This document shows positions 46,866-60,151 of a DNA stretch of 64,000 bases, piece by piece. The notes under the pieces are model-generated. The model was not told the origin of the DNA. It did no database searches and worked only from the letters and a program-made list of their open reading frames with translations. Location: NCBI GenBank assembly GCA_905235475.1, contig CAJOLU010000002.1, forward strand, positions 32,601 through 96,600, written 5' to 3'. A program made the position numbers and the translations under genes. This DNA comes from an uncultured Clostridia bacterium (lineage in GTDB: Bacteria > Bacillota > Clostridia > Christensenellales > UBA1242). Position 1 is the first letter of the stretch, and every line of letters begins with the position of its first letter.

Positions 46866-47017
46866 TTGTTCACCTCTCTGTTGATATTATACCACTAAAA
46901 TAGCCAATTTTCAATACCCAATTTCAAGTTTGTAGCGAGTTATTATTCACATTATTTTAGGTGTTTGCATATTTTGCTGTGAGTGGCTAAAAAAAACAAT
47001 AAGGAGATAATAATTAT

Positions 47018-47572
47018 ATGGCAGAATATAATGTCACCATAACAAATGGTCAGGGCTCAAAAGAAATGAAAGCTGGAACATATTCAGCACAAGCAATCAG
47101 TGCACCTGGCTATGACTTAACAACATTAAGCCCAACATCAATAACAGTTAACTCAACATCACAAACACATGCATTCACTCTAAGTGCATCAGGAACACTA
47201 ACGCTCATCTTTAACGAAACAGGGGCTGCTGGCGGAAAACCAATCACTTCGGGTAGCGTTGTGATGACCAACCAAGATGGAACAATTGAATATGGCTCAC
47301 CTGTTTCAATCAACTCAGTGGGAACCGCTATTTTTGAAAATGTTCCATATGGCAGCAGTGAAGCACCTTTCACACTCTATTTCAAACAACTTGCAACAGA
47401 CGATTATCACAACATTTACACTAATGTTATAACAGTTTCAATGAGTGGACAAACTCAAACAAACTATGTTCAAAACACCCCTATCGCTGAACAAAACTTC
47501 ACTTTAACAGACGCAAACTATCCAAACCTTCCAATTCCAAATGCCACACTAAATTTTGAAACAAATGAGTAA
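47018..47572 (+). CDS. Beta-sandwich-like protein, first of a pair
   Basis: 184 residues, Thr/Ser/Asn-rich, no signal peptide. Two Ig-like or prealbumin-like domains are suggested: about 1-55 and 58-155, with SGTLTLIFNETG and TAIFENVPYG, the latter typical of Cna-B/SpaA-type turns. The C-terminus LTDANYPNLPIPNATL is shared with the next ORF. Ribosome binding site AAGGAGAT. The absence of a secretion signal suggests a structural particle, spore-coat or phage-tail-like role, but this is not established. Confidence 0.65.
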   Translation: MAEYNVTITNGQGSKEMKAGTYSAQAISAPGYDLTTLSPTSITVNSTSQTHAFTLSASGTLTLIFNETGAAGGKPITSGSVVMTNQDGTIEYGSPVSINSVGTAIFENVPYGSSEAPFTLYFKQLATDDYHNIYTNVITVSMSGQTQTNYVQNTPIAEQNFTLTDANYPNLPIPNATLNFETNE

Positions 47573-47577
47573 ATAAA

Positions 47578-47904
47578 ATGTCTAATGTTAAACTTTGTTT
47601 ATATTCATCACGTGTGCCTTGCCAAATCAAAGTTTTTTCAACGAATGGCAGACTAATAGCACAAAAAGTGATGCACTCAAACTATGATTATCTTTATTTT
47701 TACTCAAACACACCAAATTTAGTGGTCCGCTGCGAAGCGAACAATCAAACAAATGTGAGATTCATAAATATAAGGCCGTGTTCTTGTTCACAGATGTATT
47801 TATGTTTCAATTTTAGAAGGCAAATAGCTTTGCAAAACTTTTTGCTTACAGACGCAAATTATTCTTTGCCAATCGCCAACGCAATTCTGCGATTTTCAAA
47901 TTAA
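47578..47904 (+). CDS. Second protein of the pair, sharing a C-terminal motif
   Basis: 108 residues, ATG 5 bp after the previous stop. Body is Cys/Arg/Tyr-rich and unlike the first protein, but the C-terminus FLLTDANYSLPIANAILRF matches it. This suggests a common assembly or targeting tag. The upstream ribosome binding site is weak, so translation may be coupled. A terminator follows. Confidence 0.6.
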   Translation: MSNVKLCLYSSRVPCQIKVFSTNGRLIAQKVMHSNYDYLYFYSNTPNLVVRCEANNQTNVRFINIRPCSCSQMYLCFNFRRQIALQNFLLTDANYSLPIANAILRFSN

Positions 47905-47905
47905 A

Positions 47906-47935
47906 AAAACACCTAAAAAGGTGTTTTTTTAGTTT
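47906..47935 (+). terminator. Terminator between the 47-kb pair and the CRISPR array
   Basis: AAAAAACACCT/AGGTGTTTTTT hairpin. It can end the plus-strand pair and, read from the minus strand, the pre-crRNA transcript. Confidence 0.8.
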
Positions 47936-47938
47936 ATA

Positions 47939-49884
47939 CTTTTTGTTCTATTCTAAATACCATAACACTCAAACTCAAAGAGCCAACTAACAACTTAAAT
48001 TCTCGTATGAGTACCATTTAGAATAACATAACACTCAAACTCCATTATATCGCCAATTTTAATATTAACAGTATGAGTACCATTTAGAATAACATAACAC
48101 TCAAACTTGTTGTAGTTCTGCTATTTTTTTGTCTTTGTATGAGTACCATTTAGAATAACATAACACTCAAACTTATATGAGTTCTCAAGATATAGATGAT
48201 TAGTATGAGTACCATTTAGAATAACATAACACTCAAACTGCTCATCAATTAACAAATGAAATGTAAGAGTATGAGTACCATTTAGAATAACATAACACTC
48301 AAACCACCAGAACTTTTGACTGTTGTTGCAAATAGTATGAGTACCATTTAGAATAACATAACACTCAAACCCTATTATCACAGTATCAGCATCAATGTTG
48401 GTATGAGTACCATTTAGAATAACATAACACTCAAACAATGGTAGTGTGAGAACAAATGCAAACACTGTATGAGTACCATTTAGAATAACATAACACTCAA
48501 ACACAGGAATTCGACTTCCGACCGTGTTCGGAGTATGAGTACCATTTAGAATAACATAACACTCACTCAAACTTTGTTTTATCGTTCAAACGAAACTGTT
48601 TCGTATGAGTACCATTTAGAATAACATAACACTCAAACTGCGTCTTGGTAAAGCTTAATAAGCTCGTTGTATGAGTACCATTTAGAATAACATAACACTC
48701 AAACTGGTAAGCCGCCACTAAACAATAACAATTAGTATGAGTACCATTTAGAATAACATAACACTCAAACAAATATTAACCAAGCTATGGCGTGTTTCTA
48801 GTATGAGTACCATTTAGAATCACATAACACTCAAACTTTAAAATTTTCTTGGATTGCTTTTAACTGGTATGAGTACCATTTAGAATAACATAACACTCAA
48901 ACATCGACCACCAAAGGTTGCACAAAGCCATAGTATGAGTACCATTTAGAATAACATAACACTCAAACAAACAAGTCTGTTAGGCACAAAGAAAAAATGT
49001 ATGAGTACCATTTAGAATAACATAACACTCAAACATATGAGCTGTCTTTCTTTTTGTTGTTTGCGTATGAGTACCATTTAGAATAACATAACACTCAAAC
49101 CCTCTGAGTGCTTTATATTCAAGAGCATATGTATGAGTACCATTTAGAATAACATAACACTCAAACTTGCGCTTGAGCTTGCTGCTCTTGAGTCTTGTAT
49201 GAGTACCATTTAGAATAACATAACACTCAAACGAGATATGAGATACAATAGATTTAGAGATTGTATGAGTACCATTTAGAATAACATAACACTCAAACAC
49301 AATGCAATACGCAAAGCAAAACGGAACGGTATGAGTACCATTTAGAATAACATAACACTCAAACAAAGACCTAAAGGCAAGCTAACACTAGGACGTATGA
49401 GTACCATTTAGAATAACATAACACTCAAACACCAAAGAGGGTACAAAATGTAAATTCAAAGTATGAGTACCATTTAGAATAACATAACACTCAAACACAG
49501 GAATTCGACTTCCGACCGTGTTCGGAGTATGAGTACCATTTAGAATAACATAACACTCATTTCTATTGTATGGACTTGCTTTTGGTATGAGTACCATTTA
49601 GAATAACATAACACTCAAACCCATTCCCATAACTCTCAACAAAGTTGTCAGTATGAGTACCATTTAGAATAACATAACACTCAAACTCACAATATGAGAA
49701 CACATAAAAGTAAATTGTATGAGTACCATTTAGAATAACATAACACTCAAACTTTTTCGTGGTCTTTTAAGTATTCATCTTTGTATGAGTACCATTTAGA
49801 ATAACATAACACTCAAACTTCACCGTGCTTGAACTTAACAATTCCGTCGTATGAGTACCATTTAGAATAACATAACACTCAAAC
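47939..49884 (-). CRISPR. Type II CRISPR array, 29 repeats plus one degenerate terminal repeat
   Basis: 36-bp repeats starting GTTTGAGTGTTATG and ending GGTACTCATAC on the minus strand, alternating with 30-bp spacers at a 66-bp period. The first leader-side repeat is 49849-49884; repeats run to 48005-48040; a degenerate terminal copy is at 47939-47974. Orientation comes from the GTTT start typical of type II repeats, the leader anchor at the right end, and the tracrRNA anti-repeat. Deviations: one SNP repeat (48801-48836), a repeat with 4 extra bp (48533-48572) and one truncated repeat (49527-~49559). One spacer occurs twice (48503-48532 and 49497-49526). Confidence 0.98.
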
Positions 49885-49970
49885 CTCAAATTTAAGTATT
49901 ATATATAACGACTTTTACTCTAAATGGTACAAATTTATCTTGATAAGTATAAGCATTTTACCCAATTTTG
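49885..49970 (-). promoter_or_regulatory. CRISPR leader with ATTTGAG anchor
   Basis: Read on the minus strand, the leader ends in AATTTGAG directly against the first repeat. ATTTGAG is the known leader-anchoring sequence of type II-A systems, recognised by the Cas1-Cas2 complex. A TATAAT (complement of 49898-49903) lies 14 bp before the repeat, so the pre-crRNA probably starts within a few bases of it. The leader also holds a 12-bp inverted match to the repeat (49919-49930). Confidence 0.8.
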
Positions 49971-50204
49971 TCAATCTTCTGTTTGAATATTTTTATGAAT
50001 TTCACACATATCTTTATCTATAACAACAGTTGGAATACTTAAACTATATTTATCAAAAGGACTTATTAACAACACATTGATATCATTATATGTTGCCTGT
50101 TTTATTAGTTGTTCAATTTCACCTTTTTCAAGGAATTGCTCCAAACCATTTAGTTGCAAATCCAATTTGCACCTATTCTTTATCACAACTGTTCTAAACC
50201 CCAT
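49971..50204 (-). pseudogene. In-frame Cas1-Csn2 fusion remnant (adaptation genes deleted)
   Basis: 77-aa ORF starting 1 bp after the cas9 stop, where cas1 normally begins in type II-A operons. Its first 18 residues, MGFRTVVIKNRCKLDLQL, are the standard N-terminus of type II Cas1. The rest does not continue as Cas1. Instead EQFLEKGEIEQLI...INVLLISPFDKY...VVIDKDMCEI resembles the C-terminus of Csn2 (pattern FLTKDEV..L....NLTVLFLE....YILDEDYF). The simplest reading is one deletion of about 1.6 kb that joined codon ~18 of cas1 to about the last 55 codons of csn2 and removed cas2. The product lacks the Cas1 active site, so no spacer acquisition is expected from it. It could still be expressed. 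Confidence 0.75.
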
Positions 50205-50205
50205 A

Positions 50206-53200
50206 TCACACCTTCTTACTCAAAACAATTGTTTTATATTTCAGCCCAGTCACAGATTGTTTCAAAAGTTTTATGTTCTTGCCTGTAATATTCTTTCCTA
50301 AACGAATCATACACATCCCTTTGTCACCACCAATAAATGTTAAATCAATTGTTGGTTTCCCTGCAAACTTTTTAATAACCTCAAGTAACACATATGCTTG
50401 TTCAGTTAATCCAAGTTCTTTAAATTTATCGAACCCAGTTTCCATTGTTCCTTTAAGGTTTTTGCTAATTGCATCACATTCTAAATAAAAAGGGGTTTCC
50501 GTAAATTTTAAGAGTTGTTTATATAATTCTTCATTTTGATGCCTACTCAATTTTTGATATACCTTTGTTTGAATGTCTGATTCATCAATTTCACCAAAAA
50601 TAATTTTATTATTTTCTGTTTCATTTAGAACAAGCCATTCCGCATTCTTATCATCTGTTCCAGAAGGATAAAAGGCTGAAAAATTATTTTTACCTCCCAA
50701 CTTTAGATTATTAAACTTAACTATACCATTTTTTATATAGTCTTCTTGTTCCACATCATAATAAATTTGGCTAACATTTTTCAAAATAAATCTATCACCA
50801 GTTGTTCCTGTTATTAAATATTTTTCTTTATTAATAAGCACTGTTGATTGTGCTGTTAGTTTATCATAAATAATTTTAGCATTGGTTAATTTATTCTCAG
50901 ACATTAAATATTCAAAGATCTTTTCTTGATTGTTGTTATAATCTTTTATCACATAATAAGGCACTCTTTCAATGGTTGTTTTTCTTGTTGCAGCAGAAAT
51001 CAATTCTCCTGATTTGTTATATTTGGCTGGTTTATCATCACTTTCAACAACCATATAATAAGCAATCTTTGCACTATTATATCCACCATATTTCTCTGTG
51101 TTATTTAGTGGTCCAATAGTTTTTTGTCTAATATCTGCTTTTGATTCAATTTTCACATCAGAAACTCGTTTTTGATGTTTTGTTGCTTTATATAATGTTT
51201 GATCATAAAATGCACCATTATTTTTTACAATATTTGCACGATGAGTGACAGTTATTGTATTTTTCTTGCATTGCTCATAAATTCTATTCACATCATCTTG
51301 TCCATTCCAAACAATTTTTCCTTGTGCATTTTTAACTTCTTTATCAAATAATTTCAGTCTAAAATTAAGTTGTATTCTTTTTCTATCTTTATCTGTTTTT
51401 GCGTTTGCACATTCTTTATTTTGGTCTTCAATATCTTCACGCTTTTTCTTTCCCCAAACTGCTGGATTGTTTGTCCATTTTTCACTAAACACATTGCCAA
51501 CAACAATGTTAAGAAAAGCATCTTTTGCGTGGTGCAAATCATTTATGTCTCTACATTTTATAATATCATATTTTTTCCTAAATGCTGAAACAAGTTCTGC
51601 TTTTGAAAAGCATACATCAACTGAATCAGAATATTGTTTTTTCAACAAGTTTATAACAGACATAACTTCTTGACTAGTTGTTACCAAATCACGAGCAACA
51701 AATTGTGTTAATTCCTGCTCACTAAATGGTTTTGAACGCGTTAACTTTTCAAATTTTTCATTAGTTATGAGTTGTAAATCCTTCCATCCCCTCCATAACG
51801 GCATTCTCGCATTCCTAATTTCATCATCAATTGGGTAAGTGTTGGTTTTCTTAGCATTACAAACCTTATGTGCTAAAACGCGATTGTTAAAACTATCATC
51901 TTTCACAATTGATTGTGGAACAATGTGGTCAATATCACAATATTCCGTTTTATATAAATTATTTATTTCTATTTTTTCTCCACAATATGGGCATTTTCCC
52001 ATTTGCTGATAATAAAGAGTTAGTTTATCACTACGTTTAAAATCAATTTCTTTTTCATTATTAAAAAGAGTGTTGTCACTTTTAAGTTCCAGCAAAGTTT
52101 CTTTTATGCTCCCATCTTTTGTCTGACCTATTGCTGTTTTATATATTTCTTGCATATTTGCTTGTCTTTTGTCTTTTATCTTTTTATTTGCCTCTTCTGC
52201 ACGAGTAACTTCAACAAAAATTTTGCTAGGAGCATTTCCAATAATCTCTTCTAATTCTTGAACAATTTTCACAGCTTGCCAAACACCTCGCTTAACAGAT
52301 GGCGAGCAATATAGTGCTTCAACATCATCATATCCAATTTTAAAGTTTTCTCTCACTTGATTTTCTTCCATCAAGTTTAAGATTTCCTTAATATCATATG
52401 CTGACATAATTTCTTGTAAGTTATTTTGATTTTCCCACATTAAATTAATTATAGAAATAACCTCACCAGTTCTTATATCTATAATTTGTTCTAAAAATTC
52501 TCTTGAAAATTGACCCCATTTAGAGAAATTTAATTGCTTAAATGCCTTAATTTGTTCTTCCGTGAAATTAAGCGTTGGATACATTCCATCCTTTAAATTA
52601 TTTCTAATTTTATTTACAACACGCTGTTTGTCTGACATAATTGTGTGATAAAAAATTAAATCTTCTGCAAACTTTAAACCATCAGCGCTATCTATATCAT
52701 CCCCAATTATATTTTTTATTGTTATGTATGAAGAAAAATCATTCATAAATTCACGAGTTTTACTGCCTTTTGTTTGATTTCCAAACCCAGAAATTGTTGC
52801 CTCTTTCCAAAAATCTTCTGTGTATTTATCTGGGAAATTCTCACTTAAACATTTTTTAATATCCTTATCTGTTACTTTTTTCTTAACCTTAAATAGTTTT
52901 TCAAAAATAGTTTGTTTTTCTTTTGTTGTTAATCTTTCTCCGTTCACAGACAACGTGTTCAATTCATTCAATACCCTAAATTTGGCATATAAAATAGATT
53001 GATATGGAAGAACACTTTTCCCATAAATATAGGTGCAACGATTTGTCATCCTTGTTATAAACTCTTGTTCCGCCTGATCACAATCCACTAAAGAATTGAA
53101 ATTCCAAGGTGTTAGTTTTTCACTTGATTGTTGTTTGGTCCAAACATTTGGACTAATTTCGTTATCACTTGTATTTAAACCACCTTTGATTGGCCCAACA

Positions 53201-54720
53201 TAATATGGAACACGAAATTGCAAAATTTTTATAATTTTTTCTGAATTAGTTAACCCTGTTTCATCTTTTTCAGCCAAAAATGTATATTTTGCCTCATTTG
53301 TTTTCAAAATTTGTTTTGCCTCTTCAATTAATAAACTATTTGGATAAACAGAATTATCTTTTGAATGTGGCTTTGGCAAAAAGTTGTCTGCATCAATATA
53401 ATCTAAAATTTCTTTTTTCTTTTGTTCATATTCATCATTCGTTTCCACTTCGGCTGGTGTGTTTAAAATGGATTTAACATATTTATAAAACCCTTCAGAA
53501 CTTCTATCAAACTCAGCCTTTTTGCCATCTTTTGTAAGCCCAAGAATATACTTTTTGTTGTCAAAAAAATCTTTGCCACCATATACATATAAAACATAAT
53601 TTGACATACCCTTTTGGCTAAAATGCTTATCCCTAAACATTTCATTATATTTGCTTGGATAATATGTTTTTATAAAATTTTTAAACATTTTTAATTGATC
53701 CTTGTGGGTTTTATACTTTTTAACTAACGCTGAACAAACATATTTTTCGCCACCCAAAAGTCTTATTAATTTTAGTTTAGTATATGCATCTTTCACCGTC
53801 TCCACAAGTTCAACAAGTTCTGTTGTTGCACCAGCGTTCAAAAGTTCTTGAAGTTGATTTAAATAATCTTCTTTATCAAACTCAATTTGGCTTGGTTTAT
53901 CAAACTCCAAGCCTGCAGCCTTTTTTATTTCCGACAATTTTAATATTCCATTAACCAAACATTCAGTAATTGCCTTCAAAACTTTATTGTTTTTTGTGTC
54001 AAGAATTTCGCACAATTCTTCCTTTAATTTAGTTTTTGTGAATTTTTTATCTTTATAACTATTTAATATATCATTTTCAATTTCTGGAGTAATGTTTTTA
54101 AACTCATATTGCGCAGCCTTTTCATCAAACAAATTTCCCAATTTTTGATTTATTATTTTGAAATTTTCAACAATACTATTTTGCTGTTCATCTTCTTTGT
54201 TGTTTACAGAAATGTTATCATAAAAATGGCCTCGATATTTCAAAATATTACGCAACGCCAAAAACAATAAACGAATATCTTTTGCTTGATTATTTAATAA
54301 ATTTTCTCTTAAATGCATTGCTGTTGGATAATCTTTATAATAACTTCTATCAGTATATAGCTGGCCATTCATTGTGCCATCAAAAATAGAAAATTTAGTA
54401 TTATTTAATTTTTTGTCTTTATCTTCAATCCAAAGTGAACTATTTTTCAATCTCGTTAAAAAATTGGAATCAACTTTGTTTATTTCTTCTTCAAAAATTC
54501 CACAAAGCCAATTATACTCCATTTGCTTTCGTGCCAAACGGCGCCTTGCACCACGAAAACCTCTACGATTTTCTGCAGATTCTGCCTCCTCAAACAATCT
54601 CACTCCCCAAAGATATTTGCCCTTTTTGTGCAACACATTGTAGTTTTCATCAGTCACAGCCCAGCCCACACTTGTTGTTCCTATATCTAATCCCAAAAAA
54701 TATTTAACATTATTGTTCAT
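50206..54720 (-). CDS. cas9: Cas9 endonuclease (type II-A-like)
   Basis: 1504 residues, longer than the usual ~1370 of II-A. RuvC-I FLGLDIGTTSVGWA (Asp12); Arg-rich bridge helix RRGFRGARRRLARKQ (about 52-66); alpha-helical REC lobe to ~830; RuvC-II IFVEVTRAEEANKK (~837); HNH with CPYC (~910) and DIDHIVPQS...NRVLAH...CNAKKT (~930-955); RuvC-III DLHHAKDAFLNIVVGNV (~1064); C-terminal PAM-interacting region with KYGGYNSAKIAYYMVV and a final SVTGLKYKTIVL as in II-A proteins. All catalytic motifs look intact. Ribosome binding site AAAGGAG. The upstream region is shared with the divergent tracrRNA. Guided by crRNA:tracrRNA to cut DNA. Confidence 0.97.
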   Translation of the reverse strand: MNNNVKYFLGLDIGTTSVGWAVTDENYNVLHKKGKYLWGVRLFEEAESAENRRGFRGARRRLARKQMEYNWLCGIFEEEINKVDSNFLTRLKNSSLWIEDKDKKLNNTKFSIFDGTMNGQLYTDRSYYKDYPTAMHLRENLLNNQAKDIRLLFLALRNILKYRGHFYDNISVNNKEDEQQNSIVENFKIINQKLGNLFDEKAAQYEFKNITPEIENDILNSYKDKKFTKTKLKEELCEILDTKNNKVLKAITECLVNGILKLSEIKKAAGLEFDKPSQIEFDKEDYLNQLQELLNAGATTELVELVETVKDAYTKLKLIRLLGGEKYVCSALVKKYKTHKDQLKMFKNFIKTYYPSKYNEMFRDKHFSQKGMSNYVLYVYGGKDFFDNKKYILGLTKDGKKAEFDRSSEGFYKYVKSILNTPAEVETNDEYEQKKKEILDYIDADNFLPKPHSKDNSVYPNSLLIEEAKQILKTNEAKYTFLAEKDETGLTNSEKIIKILQFRVPYYVGPIKGGLNTSDNEISPNVWTKQQSSEKLTPWNFNSLVDCDQAEQEFITRMTNRCTYIYGKSVLPYQSILYAKFRVLNELNTLSVNGERLTTKEKQTIFEKLFKVKKKVTDKDIKKCLSENFPDKYTEDFWKEATISGFGNQTKGSKTREFMNDFSSYITIKNIIGDDIDSADGLKFAEDLIFYHTIMSDKQRVVNKIRNNLKDGMYPTLNFTEEQIKAFKQLNFSKWGQFSREFLEQIIDIRTGEVISIINLMWENQNNLQEIMSAYDIKEILNLMEENQVRENFKIGYDDVEALYCSPSVKRGVWQAVKIVQELEEIIGNAPSKIFVEVTRAEEANKKIKDKRQANMQEIYKTAIGQTKDGSIKETLLELKSDNTLFNNEKEIDFKRSDKLTLYYQQMGKCPYCGEKIEINNLYKTEYCDIDHIVPQSIVKDDSFNNRVLAHKVCNAKKTNTYPIDDEIRNARMPLWRGWKDLQLITNEKFEKLTRSKPFSEQELTQFVARDLVTTSQEVMSVINLLKKQYSDSVDVCFSKAELVSAFRKKYDIIKCRDINDLHHAKDAFLNIVVGNVFSEKWTNNPAVWGKKKREDIEDQNKECANAKTDKDRKRIQLNFRLKLFDKEVKNAQGKIVWNGQDDVNRIYEQCKKNTITVTHRANIVKNNGAFYDQTLYKATKHQKRVSDVKIESKADIRQKTIGPLNNTEKYGGYNSAKIAYYMVVESDDKPAKYNKSGELISAATRKTTIERVPYYVIKDYNNNQEKIFEYLMSENKLTNAKIIYDKLTAQSTVLINKEKYLITGTTGDRFILKNVSQIYYDVEQEDYIKNGIVKFNNLKLGGKNNFSAFYPSGTDDKNAEWLVLNETENNKIIFGEIDESDIQTKVYQKLSRHQNEELYKQLLKFTETPFYLECDAISKNLKGTMETGFDKFKELGLTEQAYVLLEVIKKFAGKPTIDLTFIGGDKGMCMIRLGKNITGKNIKLLKQSVTGLKYKTIVLSKKV

Positions 54721-54761
54721 TTTTATTGACTCCTTTCAAATTTTATGATACATTTATAGTG

Positions 54762-54852
54762 TACTTAGAATAACATAACGAAAGTTCAAATAAATGTAAT
54801 CTAAGTTGTTGCCATTAGTATTGGCAAGTCCACCCTATGGGTGGATTTTTTT
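54762..54852 (+). ncRNA. tracrRNA
   Basis: The segment ACTTAGAATAACATAACG...AAGTTCAAAT (54763-54791) is complementary to the crRNA repeat. A ~15-bp upper duplex (TTAGAATAACATAAC) and a lower GUUUGA:UCAAAU stem are separated by a bulge on the tracr side (GAAAG), as in known II-A duplexes. Downstream are hairpin TTGCCA/TGGCAA (54809-54827) and terminator TCCACCC/GGGTGGA with seven T (54829-54852). A TTGACT (54726-54731) with a weak -10 (TACATT 54749 or TATAGT 54755) could drive it; the 5' end is approximate. It is divergent from cas9, and its terminator abuts the fic stop codon. Confidence 0.88.
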
Positions 54853-55837
54853 ATGTTTTAAAATACATTTGGCTTTTACTGGTTGGCTTATCTGGAATTG
54901 TCATACCCACGAGGCCCGCTTCTATTGCTGGATTTAAGTAATTTTTTCTAAATCCCGCACGAGATTTTAGTTTTAATCTTTCCATAATCATTTGTGCCGA
55001 TTGCGGATAAGTTTCCATCACTTCCATAAGTTTGTTTATTTGAATATTCAAGTGATTATAATGATTCCTTGTATCTAAAACAATATCTTTTATAGCTTTG
55101 TTAATCACATCAAGCATAAACAAAATAAATGCGTTTGATTTTTTCTCCTCAGTTGACTTTTGAATTGCCTCGTAATACTTTTCTTGATTATCTTTTATAA
55201 CACTTTCTATTGGAATATATTTAAAAATTGGTTTCCAACTGGCAAGCAGTGCTGTTTGCCATAGTCTTCCCATTCTTCCATTCCCATCACGAAATGGATG
55301 AATAAATTCAAATTCATAGTGAAACACGCTTGATTTTATAAGCATTTGAACATCAGAATTGCCAATCCAATTAAAAAGATTTTCCAAACATTCAGGAACC
55401 ATTTCCCAAGGTGGCGCAGTGTGAACCGAATTGCCTTCCTCATCAAAAACCCCAACATTATTTGTGCGAAGTTCTCCCGCTTGTTCAACCAAACCATTCA
55501 TCATTACTTTGTGAACTTTTAACAAATCTTTTATCTCATATGGATTAATATCGTCTAATTCCTTATAGGCAGCAAACGCATTTTTAACAGCCAAAATATC
55601 ATCAACTGGGCCCAAAACTCTTTTTCCGTTTAACACATCGGTTACTTGTTCCAAACTTAAAGTATTTTTCTCAATAGAAAGCGTTGATTGAATGCTTTTA
55701 AGCCTAGAAACTCTTCTTAGCCTTGGCAATTTTTCAAGTTCATTAACATTTGAAAGTTTTCCTAAATTCTCCATTATTTCTGCAGATAATTCAAACATTT
55801 CATTTGTCATATCAAAAGGTGGAATATAATTAATCAT
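54851..55837 (-). CDS. Fic-domain protein (AMP transferase family)
   Basis: 328 residues. Fic core HPFRDGNGRMGR (about 182-193) with catalytic His and anion-binding Asn. The N-terminal inhibitory helix is present (STLSIEKNTLSLEQV, about 69-83; Glu kept, next residue Lys rather than Gly/Asn), marking a self-inhibited class II Fic. A C-terminal winged-helix-like segment (SAQMIMERLKLKSRAGFRKNYL) follows. Transfers AMP or another nucleotide to a protein. Ribosome binding site AAAAGGAG. The stop lies in the tracrRNA terminator T-run. Confidence 0.9.
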   Translation of the reverse strand: MINYIPPFDMTNEMFELSAEIMENLGKLSNVNELEKLPRLRRVSRLKSIQSTLSIEKNTLSLEQVTDVLNGKRVLGPVDDILAVKNAFAAYKELDDINPYEIKDLLKVHKVMMNGLVEQAGELRTNNVGVFDEEGNSVHTAPPWEMVPECLENLFNWIGNSDVQMLIKSSVFHYEFEFIHPFRDGNGRMGRLWQTALLASWKPIFKYIPIESVIKDNQEKYYEAIQKSTEEKKSNAFILFMLDVINKAIKDIVLDTRNHYNHLNIQINKLMEVMETYPQSAQMIMERLKLKSRAGFRKNYLNPAIEAGLVGMTIPDKPTSKSQMYFKT

Positions 55838-56004
55838 AAAAACTCCTTTTTCATTTTTCTAACAAAATTATAACATAAAAAATTTTAAAATAGCAACTTC
55901 TTGAACATTATTCTGTACATTTTTCTTAACATAATTAAAAACTTTTTTATTTTATCATATATATTATTCTATACATTATTCTATTTGTTTAGCAGTTTCT
56001 ATTG
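55838..56004. other. AT-rich region upstream of fic
   Basis: Very AT-rich; probably holds the fic promoter on the minus strand. No ORF supported. Confidence 0.5.
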
Positions 56005-56103
56005 TCATTTTTTAGTGGATATATCCATTCTATCCAGCACAACCTCAGCTGTATCCAATTCTTCATTTGCTCTATCTTCAACATAAATAGTATTAATAAT
56101 ACA
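56005..56103 (-). pseudogene. C-terminal gene remnant
   Basis: A minus-strand frame ending TIYVEDRANEELDTAEVVLD...STKK plus stop has protein-like composition but no start codon or ribosome binding site; an in-frame stop lies ~33 codons upstream. Looks like the 3' end of a lost gene. Low certainty. Confidence 0.3.
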
Positions 56104-56162
56104 TTAGTAATAACTCTTGTATGTATTTGGACATAATCTACATTTCATATTTAACTTTCTGC

Positions 56163-56255
56163 ATATACCTGTTAGTCGACTACTACCGCACCCGAAAAAA
56201 GAATAAAGAACTCAAGCAACAAAAAAAGCAGTAACATTTTGTTATTGCTTTTTTT
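56163..56255 (+). repeat. ~92-bp direct repeat, copy A
   Basis: Near-identical to 56580-56670 with about four differences. Contains the palindrome TAGTCGACTA and ends in a terminator-type hairpin GCAGTAACA-TTT-TGTTATTGC with a T run. Confidence 0.85.
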
Positions 56256-56424
56256 TATTTTTAATTATATTATTTATATCTTTTTTCTTATCTAATTCTT
56301 TTGTTTCAACTTTTTTACCATCACAGTATAAATAAAATTTTGAGCCATCCGTCCTCGTAACAACTAACCCAATTGGACCATCCTCAAATCCAGTCTGATT
56401 TTTATCTTCTTTAAAATCTTCCAT
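56242..56424 (-). CDS. 60-aa hypothetical protein between the direct repeats
   Basis: ATG preceded by GAGGGAAAT. Short beta-hairpin-like core (GPIGLVVTRTDGSKFYLYCDGKKVET) and a Lys/Asn-rich tail. Its 3' end enters the terminator hairpin of repeat copy A. Function unknown; the two repeat copies bracket it like a cassette. Confidence 0.55.
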   Translation of the reverse strand: MEDFKEDKNQTGFEDGPIGLVVTRTDGSKFYLYCDGKKVETKELDKKKDINNIIKNKKKQ

Positions 56425-56579
56425 TATATTTCCCTCAACTTAACAATAATTGTATCACTGCCATCATCATTTGTCAAATTCTGCTTAGACATAGCTTAAA
56501 ACTTACTATTTCTTTCATAAATAGCTTCGTTTTCCCTTTTACTCTCAATTGATGACGTATCTCTTGCTTTACTGGCATG

Positions 56580-56670
56580 ATATACCTATTAGTCGACTAC
56601 TATCGCACCCGAAAAAAGAATAAAAACTCGAGCAACAAAAAAAGCAGTAACATTTTGTTATTGCTTTTTT
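56580..56670 (+). repeat. ~92-bp direct repeat, copy B
   Basis: Second copy, 417 bp to the right of copy A, again with TAGTCGACTA and the same hairpin terminator. The promoter of the first small RNA begins 30 bp further right. Confidence 0.85.
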
Positions 56671-56700
56671 ATAAAAAGTTAACATTTTTTTGCAAAACAG

Positions 56701-56795
56701 TTGACTTTTTTGTGAAAATTGAGTATAATATTTATGAATTTGAGATAATAACGTTTGCTTTTAGCGAGCTATAAACACCTTCTCAAATTTTTTTT
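56701..56795 (+). ncRNA. Putative small RNA 1 with its own promoter and terminator
   Basis: Perfect promoter TTGACT (56701-56706), 17-bp spacer, TATAAT (56724-56729). Predicted RNA from ~56736 has a closing stem AATTTGAGA (56737-56745)/TCTCAAATT (56781-56789) followed by a T run, giving about 60 nt. No ORF with a ribosome binding site. The promoter is repeated identically at 56926. Confidence 0.6.
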
Positions 56796-56905
56796 ATTTT
56801 AATTTCATAAATAATGTTTTTATTTTTTGTTTCACCAACATTAACTGTGACATTATATTTCCCATTTTCTTTTTGAATTTGATTTTTAAAATAATGCCAC
56901 TTGTT
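56783..56905 (-). pseudogene. C-terminal remnant of a possible toxin/nuclease domain
   Basis: Minus-strand frame WHYFKNQIQKENGKYNVTVNVGE...YEIKIKK plus stop resembles the C-terminal strands of phage/MuF-associated nuclease-type domains (K-W-x-x-Y-K...V-x-V-N-V-G-E...Y-D-I-K). The upstream part of the frame is antisense to small RNA 2 and has no plausible start, so this looks like a fragment. Confidence 0.35.
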
Positions 56906-56925
56906 AATATGCTGATGTTTAACAA

Positions 56926-57009
56926 TTGACTTTTTTGTGAAAATTGAGTATAATAACCATGTAAGCTTGAGATTTAGAACTTCGTGTTCCAATTGGTCTC
57001 AAGTTTTTT
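56926..57009 (+). ncRNA. Putative small RNA 2, tandem paralogue of small RNA 1
   Basis: Promoter TTGACT (56926-56931)/TATAAT (56949-56954) with the same 17-bp spacer sequence as small RNA 1. Predicted RNA from ~56961 has stem CTTGAGA (56966-56972)/TCTCAAG (56997-57003) plus a T run, with inner hairpin GAAC-TTCGT-GTTC. About 45-50 nt, no ORF. Confidence 0.6.
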
Positions 57010-57029
57010 GTTTCTAAAAGAAACTAAAT

Positions 57030-57091
57030 AAAGAGTAAGAGTTATGTTAAAGTATGAGTACCACTTAGAATAACATACAAGTTCACTCTTT
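57030..57091 (+). repeat. Orphan CRISPR repeat/anti-repeat-like hairpin
   Basis: 57052-57077 matches the first 26 bp of the plus-strand CRISPR repeat at 25 positions; the one difference (ACTTAGAA for ATTTAGAA) is shared with the tracrRNA. It sits in a hairpin: outer AAAGAGT (57030-57036)/ACTCTTT (57085-57091), inner TATGTTA/TAACATA. It lies 2.2 kb right of the tracrRNA, with no second array copy nearby. Confidence 0.75.
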
Positions 57092-57187
57092 GTTCGTGCA
57101 TACCGCCCTTGCATATTTGCCATATAATTATTTGTAAAATTAAAATAAATTGCACGACAAAAAATTATAGAAAGCCCAAAACAAAAA

Positions 57188-57222
57188 TAAAACTGACAAA
57201 AAGATTCTTGTCAGCTTTATTG
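57188..57222. terminator. Terminator downstream of ferritin-like gene
   Basis: Stem AAACTGACAA...TTGTCAGCTTT; on the minus strand it follows the stop region of the ferritin-like gene. Confidence 0.55.
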
Positions 57223-57264
57223 AATATAAATAATATTTTCTTATTTTAATATTTAATTTTTAGT

Positions 57265-58509
57265 TTATTTTTCGCATTTTCGGGCAAGTGTGGTGTTATC
57301 CTTTTTGCGGTTTTGCAAAGCCTTTACTGGGTTTGGGCTATCTTCATATCTATAGTCTTTGCCTATGATATCAATAGACCTTTGAATAACAACATGGCTT
57401 GGCGTTGTTTCCTCATTAACAACTTGATTTTGGTAAACCTCATAAACATTGTTTTCTGGCAAATCACAAATATCTAAATATTCTTTGTTAAGAGTTGTGT
57501 TTGTAACTGTGTTTTTAAGCACATCTCGCACATATTCTTTATTTGTTCCCAGTTCCAAAAGTAAAGGAAAATCACCCGCGCCAACAACATCTTTATATGA
57601 CTTGTGTTCATATTTTTCTAGCAAAGCAGAGGCAATTTTTAGGTGTGAACATTCCATTTCAAAATGCTCTTCCCATATTTTGCGAATATTCTCATCTTGT
57701 TCTGAACTCATTGCGCTATAATATAAATAACACTCTGTAAACTCGTGCATCACCCACTGTTCAAGCCACGAGCAAGTTGGGTCTTTAAGCGATTCATATT
57801 GAGACACATGTTCTTCTTCAATCATTGCAATTTCGCTATATAATTTTCTACCCAAATCATTTTTATACCACTGTGCGATGTTCATATAATAATTCATTGT
57901 TTGTTGTTCCGCTGCAGTTATAATGCTTGCAACAAGTTTTGTGTATATGCTTGATTGTTTTGCTTTCATATGTGCTTTTAAGTCTTGAGTTGGAAATCTG
58001 TGCTCTGCAATAGTTGGTCTGCCTGGTGTGATTTCAGTAAATCCGCCAACAAGTGTTTTGGCGTCCATATTTTTATCTATCTTTAGCAAATTTGCAAAAC
58101 GATACAAGTGGTCAAAATCTTCTAGTAGTGCAAAATCAAGTGCTTTTTTGTTGTTTTCATCTGTTTCATACTTAGCAAGACACGCTGTTAAATCAATAGC
58201 CAGTTGTTCATATGCAATTGTTGTTTCCAAAATGCTTTCGTTAATTGGTTTTAGTGCAGCAATACGCTTTTGTTGTTGCTGTTCCTGTTTTCTCACAATT
58301 GCAAGTGCTTCTAAGATTTCATCAACATCGCAGTGCCTTGCAAACTGGTGCATAAACCAAACAGACTCATATTCAGTGCCATTCATAAGTATTACCCTAC
58401 ATTTTGTGTATGGACCTGTTTTGTTTTTGTTATACGCCTTTGGATATGCATTTTCAAGGCTTATGAAATAATCTGTTAAATCTTTTGTTTCAACATTAAA
58501 TGGATTCAT
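57265..58509 (-). CDS. Ferritin-like domain protein
   Basis: 414 residues from the ATG at 58509, behind GGGAGGGAA; a longer frame has no ribosome binding site. The middle (about 195-330) has the four-helix diiron pattern: EQQTMNYY, IEEEHVSQYESL, MHEFTECYLYYS and EMECSHLKIA, giving paired E/ExxH ligands. N- and C-terminal regions are not recognised. A role in iron/oxygen handling is inferred. Monocistronic. Confidence 0.75.
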   Translation of the reverse strand: MNPFNVETKDLTDYFISLENAYPKAYNKNKTGPYTKCRVILMNGTEYESVWFMHQFARHCDVDEILEALAIVRKQEQQQQKRIAALKPINESILETTIAYEQLAIDLTACLAKYETDENNKKALDFALLEDFDHLYRFANLLKIDKNMDAKTLVGGFTEITPGRPTIAEHRFPTQDLKAHMKAKQSSIYTKLVASIITAAEQQTMNYYMNIAQWYKNDLGRKLYSEIAMIEEEHVSQYESLKDPTCSWLEQWVMHEFTECYLYYSAMSSEQDENIRKIWEEHFEMECSHLKIASALLEKYEHKSYKDVVGAGDFPLLLELGTNKEYVRDVLKNTVTNTTLNKEYLDICDLPENNVYEVYQNQVVNEETTPSHVVIQRSIDIIGKDYRYEDSPNPVKALQNRKKDNTTLARKCEK

Positions 58510-58710
58510 ACATTCCCTCCCAACATAATTATGAAGTAATCCATTCAATTTTATACACATAAATTTATCTTCCCTATAAAATACACTCAAGAAGTGATAA
58601 ATAACAAAAAATATGAGTTTTGATATCTAGCGTTCTTTTATATTAATATAAAATAGACAAAATAAAATGTTTTTAATATAATTTATGTTATAAAAATAAA
58701 GGTAACATTT

Positions 58711-58812
58711 ATGGAAACAACAAAGGAAACACAATTTCTTAACTAGACAACAAATAGCATATTTTTGCAAAAAAGTTAAAAGTGGTTCATTTTTTGAACC
58801 ACTTTTTAATAT
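58711..58812 (+). ncRNA. Possible short transcript with strong bidirectional terminator
   Basis: An 11-codon ORF (METTKETQFLN, ATG 58711, weak AAAGGTAAC) is followed by hairpin AAAGTGGTTCA/TGAACCACTTT (58780-58808). The hairpin also terminates the minus-strand gene ending at 58816. The plus-strand transcript is speculative. Confidence 0.3.
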
Positions 58813-58815
58813 AAT

Positions 58816-59298
58816 TTATTTTGAAAATAAATCCAACAAATATTCATTATTATGCAAATAGATTATTTCCTTATTATATTTTTTAATATCATCAATAGAT
58901 TTCAACACATTGTTAATATTTCTCTCAGCAACCTCAAGAGTATTACCTCGAGAGATGTAATCATTTTTCAATTGTTCCAATTTGTCTTCAGCAGGCACAA
59001 CAAAATCAAAATCAATATTATTTTCAATCAAAAAATCAATATTTGTTTGTTTTAATGCCATAACAACAATTTTATCTTGCGCCAATCCATTCTTAACAAA
59101 ATCTATAAGATTTTGAGGAAAATCAGGATTTAATTTCATTTCCATTGGTTGACCTTTAATCTTTTCCAAATATTCTTCAGATAAGTTTGCTGTGTTCAAA
59201 TTTTGGAAATGGCTCAATCTAACATCTAGAATGTTTTTATTGCATTTTGCAGCGTAAGTTTTACCCAAACCTGGATAAACTAGGTATACCTTCTCCAT
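58816..59298 (-). CDS. P-loop-like nucleotide-kinase-type small protein
   Basis: 160 residues. N-terminal YLVYPGLGKTYAAK is a P-loop-like G-x-G-K-T motif, followed by DVRLSHFQNL, as in small phage or bacterial nucleotide-kinase/AAA-like proteins. C-terminus is Asn/Lys-rich helical. ATG behind AAAAGGAG. Substrate unknown. Confidence 0.6.
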   Translation of the reverse strand: MEKVYLVYPGLGKTYAAKCNKNILDVRLSHFQNLNTANLSEEYLEKIKGQPMEMKLNPDFPQNLIDFVKNGLAQDKIVVMALKQTNIDFLIENNIDFDFVVPAEDKLEQLKNDYISRGNTLEVAERNINNVLKSIDDIKKYNKEIIYLHNNEYLLDLFSK

Positions 59299-59458
59299 AA
59301 TTTTCTCCTTTTAGGTTAATTTATTAATTACATAGTAATTAATATTAGTTGCAATAATAGCATACAAAAATTAAAAAAACAAGTAGATTAATTAAAATTT
59401 GTTAAAAAAACTATGTTTTGCACTAATATAATCAGCAAAACTTGCGTTAATTTTAAAA

Positions 59459-60151
59459 TCAACTCTTATGATTTAAAATAATTGATTCAAACCACTGCTC
59501 TTGAAATTCAGTTAATGCTCTTATTTGGTCATCAGTATAATTGTTACCATCTTTCACAACAACAAGTTTATCATCATCGTCATTTGTCCTATGAATAATT
59601 GCAATAACTTTGCCGGTAAATTCTTCAAGTGGCTCAAATTCGCCAAGAACATATGCATCTAATTCCTCTCCATCACCCGACACTGTGTTTGGAATATATC
59701 CATAATTAACAGGATATATAAAACCATGCTTTGGATGTTTGCTCCCAAGTGGCCTATCCATTTTTACATTTACAATTTGACCAATAAATCCTTTGTTCAA
59801 AGTTTGCACACCTAAATGTGGCACCTTAATTTCAATACCAACAACCCCATATTTAGATTGCTCTTCTTTATTGTAATACTTCTCCATATCACTTGGCAAA
59901 GCCTCTTCTTCTTTTGTATAACCAAGAGCTATTTTATCAAAATGTTTATAAAGTTCTTCAAAAGATGTAAAAATATGAAGAGCAATGACTTCTGTCAATA
60001 TTTCTTCTCCATTGGAGATGTTTGTAAATCGTATCATATCTTTTGGATTTATGTTTTGTCGCTTTTCATCATAAAGACGCATTTCTATTGTTTTTAAACC
60101 TTTCTTAATGTCATTAAAAGGTTTTTCATTCAATTTCATATCGTGAATCAC
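59459..60151 (-). CDS. ASCH domain fused to inorganic pyrophosphatase-like domain
   Basis: 230 residues from a GTG at 60151, 8 nt after AAAGGAG. N-terminal ASCH fold (about 1-105): HDMKLNEKPFNDIKKGLKTI with EMRLYDEKRQ, an RNA- or nucleotide-binding domain. C-terminal part (about 115-230): DRPLGSKHPKHGFIYPVNYG and GDGEELDAYVLG, the pyrophosphatase-type acidic metal site. The pairing suggests an RNA- or nucleotide-linked pyrophosphate reaction; not established. Confidence 0.8.
   Translation of the reverse strand: MIHDMKLNEKPFNDIKKGLKTIEMRLYDEKRQNINPKDMIRFTNISNGEEILTEVIALHIFTSFEELYKHFDKIALGYTKEEEALPSDMEKYYNKEEQSKYGVVGIEIKVPHLGVQTLNKGFIGQIVNVKMDRPLGSKHPKHGFIYPVNYGYIPNTVSGDGEELDAYVLGEFEPLEEFTGKVIAIIHRTNDDDDKLVVVKDGNNYTDDQIRALTEFQEQWFESIILNHKS

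What the first reader, a model, noticed from the sequence alone, without database searches (positions are those of the whole stretch)
49971..50204. Adaptation module collapsed into a 77-codon Cas1-Csn2 fusion behind cas9
The ORF directly after cas9 begins like Cas1 (MGFRTVVIKNRCKLDLQL) and ends like Csn2 (EKGEIEQLI...NVLLI...VIDKDMCEI). One in-frame deletion of roughly 1.6 kb would explain it and leaves a system with a complete Cas9, tracrRNA, leader and array but no spacer acquisition. The join keeps the frame open, so a small chimeric protein could be made. Csn2 C-terminal fragments lack the dsDNA-ring core, so function is doubtful, but a frame-preserving join in an otherwise intact locus deserves a test for selection.
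Basis: partly seen in the sequence, partly recalled or inferred. Interest (0 to 1): 0.85.

Follow-up and report, generated by a model that had tools for sequence, protein, structure and literature searches.

The report
Cas9 locus lost its spacer-acquisition genes
Behind an intact Cas9 gene, a deletion has cut out the genes that add new phage memories and left a 77-codon scar made of the start of Cas1 and the end of Csn2, and the same kind of loss turns up separately in several related bacteria.

Summary
The 77-codon ORF at 49971-50204 (-) starts 1 nt after the cas9 stop. Residues 1-19 match the Cas1 start of related type II-A loci; residues ~20-69 match the last ~50 residues of Csn2 (TIGR01866, 35.9 bits, cut-off 35). 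Relatives carry cas9-cas1-cas2-csn2-array, so about 1.6 kb is missing. No Cas1 or Cas2 was found elsewhere in the 88%-complete genome.

The loss recurs: 8 of 118 related loci (this one included) have lost most or all of cas1, five of them also cas2 and most of csn2, on five separate Cas9 branches. All 8 keep the csn2 3' end, where the array promoter usually begins; 7 of 8 keep a piece of the cas1 start. Several remnants were assigned by eye.

Best explanation: deletions bounded by what immunity still needs (cas9 stop, array promoter), leaving fixed-memory Cas9. The chimera is most likely a by-product: in-frame joins are 5 of 7 scorable (P about 0.045, hand-called, uncorrected), two are out of frame. 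Adaptation-less loci are known; the repeated scar and a promoter-based reason for its ends are the new detail.

The parts
49971..50204 (-). 77-codon chimeric ORF (scar): Cas1 start joined in frame to Csn2 end
50148..50204 (-). cas1 5' remnant, codons 1-19
   Evidence: 17 of 19 identical to Cas1 of L082; PADLOC Cas1_II E 0.0026
49998..50147 (-). csn2 3' remnant, about residues 170-220 of 220
   Evidence: TIGR01866 167-222
49971..49997 (-). 8-codon extension beyond the usual Csn2 end, plus stop
50206..54720 (-). cas9, 1504 aa, uninterrupted; D12, E837, H932, D1067 are among the columns invariant in 12 aligned Cas9s (that these are the catalytic residues is general knowledge, not a call)
49946..49974 (-). 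array promoter candidate TTGACA-17-TATACT; the ORF stop lies inside the -35 box
   Evidence: score 11 of 12; reached by 7 of 2000 single-base shuffles
49916..49930 (-). leader anti-repeat that pairs with the first repeat
   Evidence: fold z -7.0
47939..49884 (-). CRISPR array: 30 repeats of 36 nt (last degenerate), 29 spacers, 28 different
57052..57077 (+). tracrRNA anti-repeat candidate, upstream of cas9 on the opposite strand
   Evidence: 17 of 18 match; that listing stopped at seven hits a strand and this was the seventh on +; sequence; no Rfam match at gathering score in 47000-60000

Best explanation
A type II-A locus lost its adaptation module in a deletion of about 1.6 kb, running from codon ~19 of cas1 to residue ~170 of csn2. 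Shown: the anatomy, the homologies, the intact relatives, and repeated loss of the same kind. Inferred: Cas9, tracrRNA and the array still give immunity with a fixed spacer set; the deletion ends are set by what that immunity needs, the cas9 stop upstream and the array promoter downstream, whose -35 box usually begins at or near the csn2 stop. The 77-aa product may be translated from its place behind cas9 but is most likely a non-functional by-product.
For: Profile matches to Csn2 and 17 of 19 identity to a Cas1 start. Full cas1, cas2 and csn2 in 52 of 60 loci with at least 2,300 nt behind cas9, and the three genes found in 14 of 14 more with 1,900-2,299 nt. No Cas1 or Cas2 match in the own genome. 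Five full losses on separate branches of a 73-sequence Cas9 tree. csn2 3' end kept in 8 of 8 cas1-deleted loci. The best promoter match starts 0-1 nt after the csn2 stop in 7 of 12 scanned relatives and overlaps the stop in 2 more. Cas9 has one uninterrupted frame over nearly the whole model in 6 of the 8. L105 against intact L069: Cas9 dN 0.078, dS 0.620, a ratio like that of the pair L079/L069, 0.183 and 1.662. One spacer matches microvirus capsid genes.
Against: No reads, RNA or protein data. The genome is 88% complete, so cas1/cas2 in trans is not excluded. 5 of 7 scorable joins are in frame, more than one third. Two of the 8 cas1-deleted loci have a frameshifted or shortened cas9 (L122; G934 behind L220), so immunity is not kept in all. 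In 3 of 12 relatives no good promoter was found at the csn2 end, and in L098 the best match lies elsewhere. The L105 dN/dS covers time before the deletion too. None of 27 order-level loci had the loss.
Confidence: 0.86

Rival explanations
1. The 77-aa chimera is a functional small protein, for instance one that binds or tunes Cas9, and is kept by selection.
For: In frame, directly behind cas9; in-frame joins 5 of 7 scorable; both pieces as conserved as in intact genes.
Against: The other scars keep different residues and two are out of frame (L076, L220); L105's first join was later frameshifted. AlphaFold2 mean pLDDT is 68.7, with 46 and 62 for residues 1-10 and 11-20; this is weak evidence. 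Recent deletion explains the conservation.
Confidence: 0.05
2. Assembly join: the deletion is a chimera of the assembly, not of the genome.
For: The window lies in an incomplete 10-contig assembly; no reads could be examined.
Against: Comparable cas1 losses in seven other assemblies; here the join is in frame and lies in a continuous locus with promoter, leader hairpin and array.
Confidence: 0.05
3. The locus still acquires spacers using Cas1/Cas2 from another system in the same cell.
For: In-trans adaptation is documented for a type VI-B locus (PMC8092290, outline and passages). The genome is 88% complete.
Against: No Cas1 or Cas2 match in the held genome; the 28 repeat matches found all lie in this array (arrays with other repeats were not searched for).
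Confidence: 0.07

Closest known systems
Type II-A CRISPR-Cas (cas9-cas1-cas2-csn2-array)
   Same: Cas9 family, array geometry (36 + 30), leader hairpin with the first repeat, csn2 remnant, order of what is left
   Different: No cas2, 19 codons of cas1 and the last ~50 of csn2; the module is reduced to a 77-codon scar
Degraded type II loci of Mollicutes (PMC6882279 and PMC11893278, passages read)
   Same: Inactivation or loss of cas genes; 8 of 21 systems degraded in the survey of PMC6882279
   Different: In the M. gallisepticum passages the losses hit cas9 or take tracrRNA and the four cas genes together, leaving only the array; here cas9, leader and array remain
Adaptation-less loci that acquire in trans (PMC8092290, passages read)
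   Same: Effector and array without cas1/cas2
   Different: No Cas1 or Cas2 of another system was found in this genome

Membership tests
Type II-A CRISPR-Cas | Cas9 effector | tested here: met
   TIGR01865, 764 bits, residues 7-1493; best PDB matches are Cas9
Type II-A CRISPR-Cas | complete csn2 gene | tested here: not met
   only model positions 167-222 of 222 remain; no other Csn2 in the genome held
Type II-A CRISPR-Cas | cas1 and cas2 | tested here: not met
   19 codons of cas1; no match elsewhere in the genome held
Type II-A CRISPR-Cas | array with leader at the cas side | tested here: met
Type II-A CRISPR-Cas | tracrRNA | tested here: inconclusive
   anti-repeat candidate at 57052-57077 (+); transcript not shown
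Csn2 protein | full-length Csn2, about 220 residues | tested here: not met
   about 50 of 220 residues
Cas1 integrase | full Cas1 with its catalytic part | tested here: not met
   first 19 of about 286 residues only; that the catalytic residues lie further on is general knowledge
Interference-competent Cas9 locus | cuts DNA guided by its spacers | not testable with these tools
   needs an experiment

The most novel reading that the evidence does not exclude
In this group of bacteria selection repeatedly converts II-A systems into fixed-memory, innate-like Cas9 immunity by cutting out the acquisition genes, and the surplus of in-frame joins (5 of 7 scorable) means that uninterrupted translation across the scar, between cas9 and the array promoter, is itself useful, for instance by avoiding premature transcription termination.
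Probability: 0.15. Interest if true: 0.6.

Novelty: new member of a known kind. Interest (0 to 1): 0.36.

Why it matters
It shows what survives when a Cas9 system stops learning: in most of these loci effector, leader, promoter and memory stay while the acquisition genes go, and this happened more than once. The cost of spacer acquisition becomes testable by comparing sister lineages with and without the module (L105 against L069 is such a pair). It also warns that small ORFs behind cas9 can be deletion scars rather than new cas genes or regulators.

Tried and rejected
A stand-alone small protein family was rejected: the matches are to Csn2 and Cas1 only, and each relative's scar is made of different lengths of cas genes. 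No conserved Cas1-Csn2 fusion was seen in the loci examined; L098 has a different in-frame join. A first genome-contig scan with the single Cas9 confirmed no relative; the scan with the alignment worked. Exact scans of viral contigs with the cores of spacers 14, 1 and 6 found nothing. A PDB search with an intact Csn2 found nothing at E 0.001. Rfam gave five matches, all below their gathering scores. The duplicated spacer: only its two array copies were found in the genome at up to 2 mismatches. Paper searches; the one paper with both 'Cas1-Csn2' and 'fusion' uses the former as a primer name in the passages shown. These cover open-licence PMC only.

Rows dropped: 10 of the 84 loci have less than 1,900 nt behind cas9 and were not counted. 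Of 349 relatives only the best 80 were held. 13 of 40 order-level stretches were duplicates; order- and class-level hits at contig ends or already held were not fetched. L211 shares a probe with L162, but its cas frames differ in length and it was counted apart. L208 was counted although its contig ends inside csn2, 1,597 nt behind cas9; it has cas1 and cas2. Three of ten junctions (L122, L218, the second of L214) could not be scored for frame.

Full report
What is there. The ORF 49971-50204 (-) has 77 codons, starts 1 nt after the cas9 stop, and is read on the same strand as cas9. Residues 16-69 match the end of Csn2: TIGR01866 positions 167-222 of 222, 35.9 bits against a cut-off of 35; Pfam PF09711 just below its cut-off (22.4 against 23.7); ten PADLOC Csn2 models, best E 1.3e-10. 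Residues 1-19 are the start of Cas1: PADLOC Cas1_II gives E 0.0026, Pfam and NCBIfam give no Cas1 hit, and 17 of 19 residues equal those of L082 Cas1, which sits at the same place behind cas9. The BLAST E-values come from a database of 15 sequences, and the alignment to Cas1 beyond residue 19 is not meaningful.

Size and ends of the gap. Csn2 of the 12 nearest intact relatives stops at ..C(E/V/I/L)I; here 8 further codons follow and the stop lies inside the -35 box of the array promoter.

The rest of the locus. cas9 is uninterrupted, 1504 aa, and D12, E837, H932 and D1067 are among the invariant columns of 12 aligned Cas9s; that these are the catalytic residues is general knowledge. The array has 30 repeats and 29 spacers. 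The leader pairs with the first repeat (z -7.0), the kind of hairpin that PMC12080349 describes for type II-A (abstract and passages seen). An anti-repeat on the + strand at 57052-57077 is a tracrRNA candidate; a promoter-like TTGACT-17-TATAAT at 56926-56954 was read by eye, and a terminator-like hairpin lies between the two, so the transcript is not settled. The array matched 13 phage records at E up to 1: eight microviruses at spacer 14 and five others at E 0.6 elsewhere, which look like chance. In four of the eight that were read, the spacer has 1, 2, 2 and 3 mismatches, and three of the four carry GGG directly 3' of it. These are the same gene region, not independent.

Own genome and kin. 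839,660 bases in 10 contigs, 88% complete. No Cas1, no Cas2, no other Csn2, and no copy of this repeat outside this array. In the genus, 2 of 9 genomes carry a Cas9 match, the other one only 31% identical. In the family, 19 of 309 genomes carry a Cas9 of this kind, and two of those, this one and G215 (L047/L122), have lost the module.

Survey. A scan with the Cas9 alignment found 349 relatives, of which the best 80 were kept. With this window and three loci from whole genomes that makes 84. Sixty have at least 2,300 nt behind cas9: 52 carry full cas1, cas2 and csn2; five lack cas1 and cas2 (this window, L076, L098, L105, L122); three have a damaged csn2 only (L048, L071, L086). Fourteen more with 1,900-2,299 nt show all three genes. 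The order-level search added 27 new loci, none with cas1 deleted, three with split frames in cas1 or cas2. The class-level search added 17, three with cas1 deleted (L214, L218, L220) and one with cas1 split over three frames (L216). In all, 8 of 118, or 7 of 117 without the window that started the search. L218 and L220 are close kin (90-93% DNA identity in the two main blocks) and may share a first event, so 'at least seven events' is an inference; only five were placed on the tree, on five separate branches with intact loci between them.

The scars. L098: cas1 residues 1-51, found by profile, joined in frame to about 12 residues of the csn2 end, with a TTG start. L076: cas1 1-16 joined out of frame to the csn2 end. 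L105: cas1 1-10 joined to the end of cas2, and csn2 (found by profile) with an internal deletion of 444 nt. L122: cas1 not seen, about 13 codons of csn2 left, cas9 frameshifted. L214: cas1 ~1-8 joined in frame to ~221-281, and cas2 1-33. L218: cas1 1-62, with cas2 and csn2 whole. L220: cas1 ~17 codons joined out of frame to csn2 residue ~23; its Cas9 match begins at model position 244. The cas1 remnants of L076 and L105, the first codons in L214, and the csn2 ends of L076, L098 and L122 were read by eye from translations; the profiles did not report them. On that reading the csn2 3' end is kept in 8 of 8 and the cas1 5' end in 7 of 8.

Why these ends. In 12 relatives scanned, the best promoter match in the leader starts with its -35 box 0-1 nt after the csn2 stop in 7, overlaps the stop in 2, and is poor or elsewhere in 3. 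Among the five full losses it lies at or within the csn2 end in four (this window, L122, L076, L105) and elsewhere in L098. A deletion past the csn2 end would remove array transcription, and one into cas9 would remove the effector. The ends are thus where a locus that still needs interference would tolerate them. This is inference; L122 and L220, with damaged or shortened cas9, show that interference is not kept everywhere.

Is the chimera selected? Seven of ten junctions could be scored for frame: in frame in this window, L098, L105 (both) and L214; out of frame in L076 and L220. Five or more of seven has P = 99/2187, about 0.045, at one third each; this is worked out by hand, uncorrected and after the fact. 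L105's first join is in frame only up to a later one-base insertion. The Cas1 piece of this window is 79% identical to relatives (79% among intact pairs) and the Csn2 piece 38% (30% expected from a linear fit on Cas9 identity, extended beyond the range of the intact pairs; the six most distant intact pairs average 37%). So the deletion is recent on this branch or the pieces are constrained; the data cannot tell these apart. AlphaFold2 gives the ORF mean pLDDT 68.7, the Csn2 part better than the Cas1 part.

Mechanism of deletion. Against its near relative L069, the first L105 junction lies in 13 bases that align to both sides, imperfectly. L220 against L218 shows a junction with no shared bases in the alignment. 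For this window no relative is near enough.

Known or new. Degraded and adaptation-less CRISPR loci are known (PMC6882279, PMC11893278, PMC8092290, passages). I found no description of repeated cas1-to-csn2 scars in the listings of searches, which cover only open-licence PMC papers and of which I opened few.

Noticed in passing
window 49497-49526 and 48503-48532 (array): Spacers 6 and 21 are identical, and each follows an irregular unit: a short 22-nt spacer with an altered repeat start, and a repeat with what looks like a 4-nt insertion. This looks like rearrangement within the array rather than two acquisitions.
   Followed up: partly
L071:14256-16175: csn2 keeps only its first ~65 residues and its frame runs on into a 640-codon frame of other sequence, which by eye (no search) resembles a flavoprotein; cas1 and cas2 are intact.
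   Followed up: no
L047:6920-7000 (same locus as L122): Between the cas9 stop and the csn2 remnant lies a stretch that by eye resembles the anti-repeat, which may mark how the deletion was joined.
   Followed up: no
window 56926-57016: Promoter-like TTGACT-17-TATAAT followed by a terminator-like hairpin with a T run, just upstream of the tracrRNA anti-repeat candidate; a possible separate small RNA (read by eye).
   Followed up: no
L033-L044, leaders: Several leaders of the family carry a short anti-repeat-like stretch that by eye changes along with the repeat between species, as expected for a leader hairpin.
   Followed up: partly
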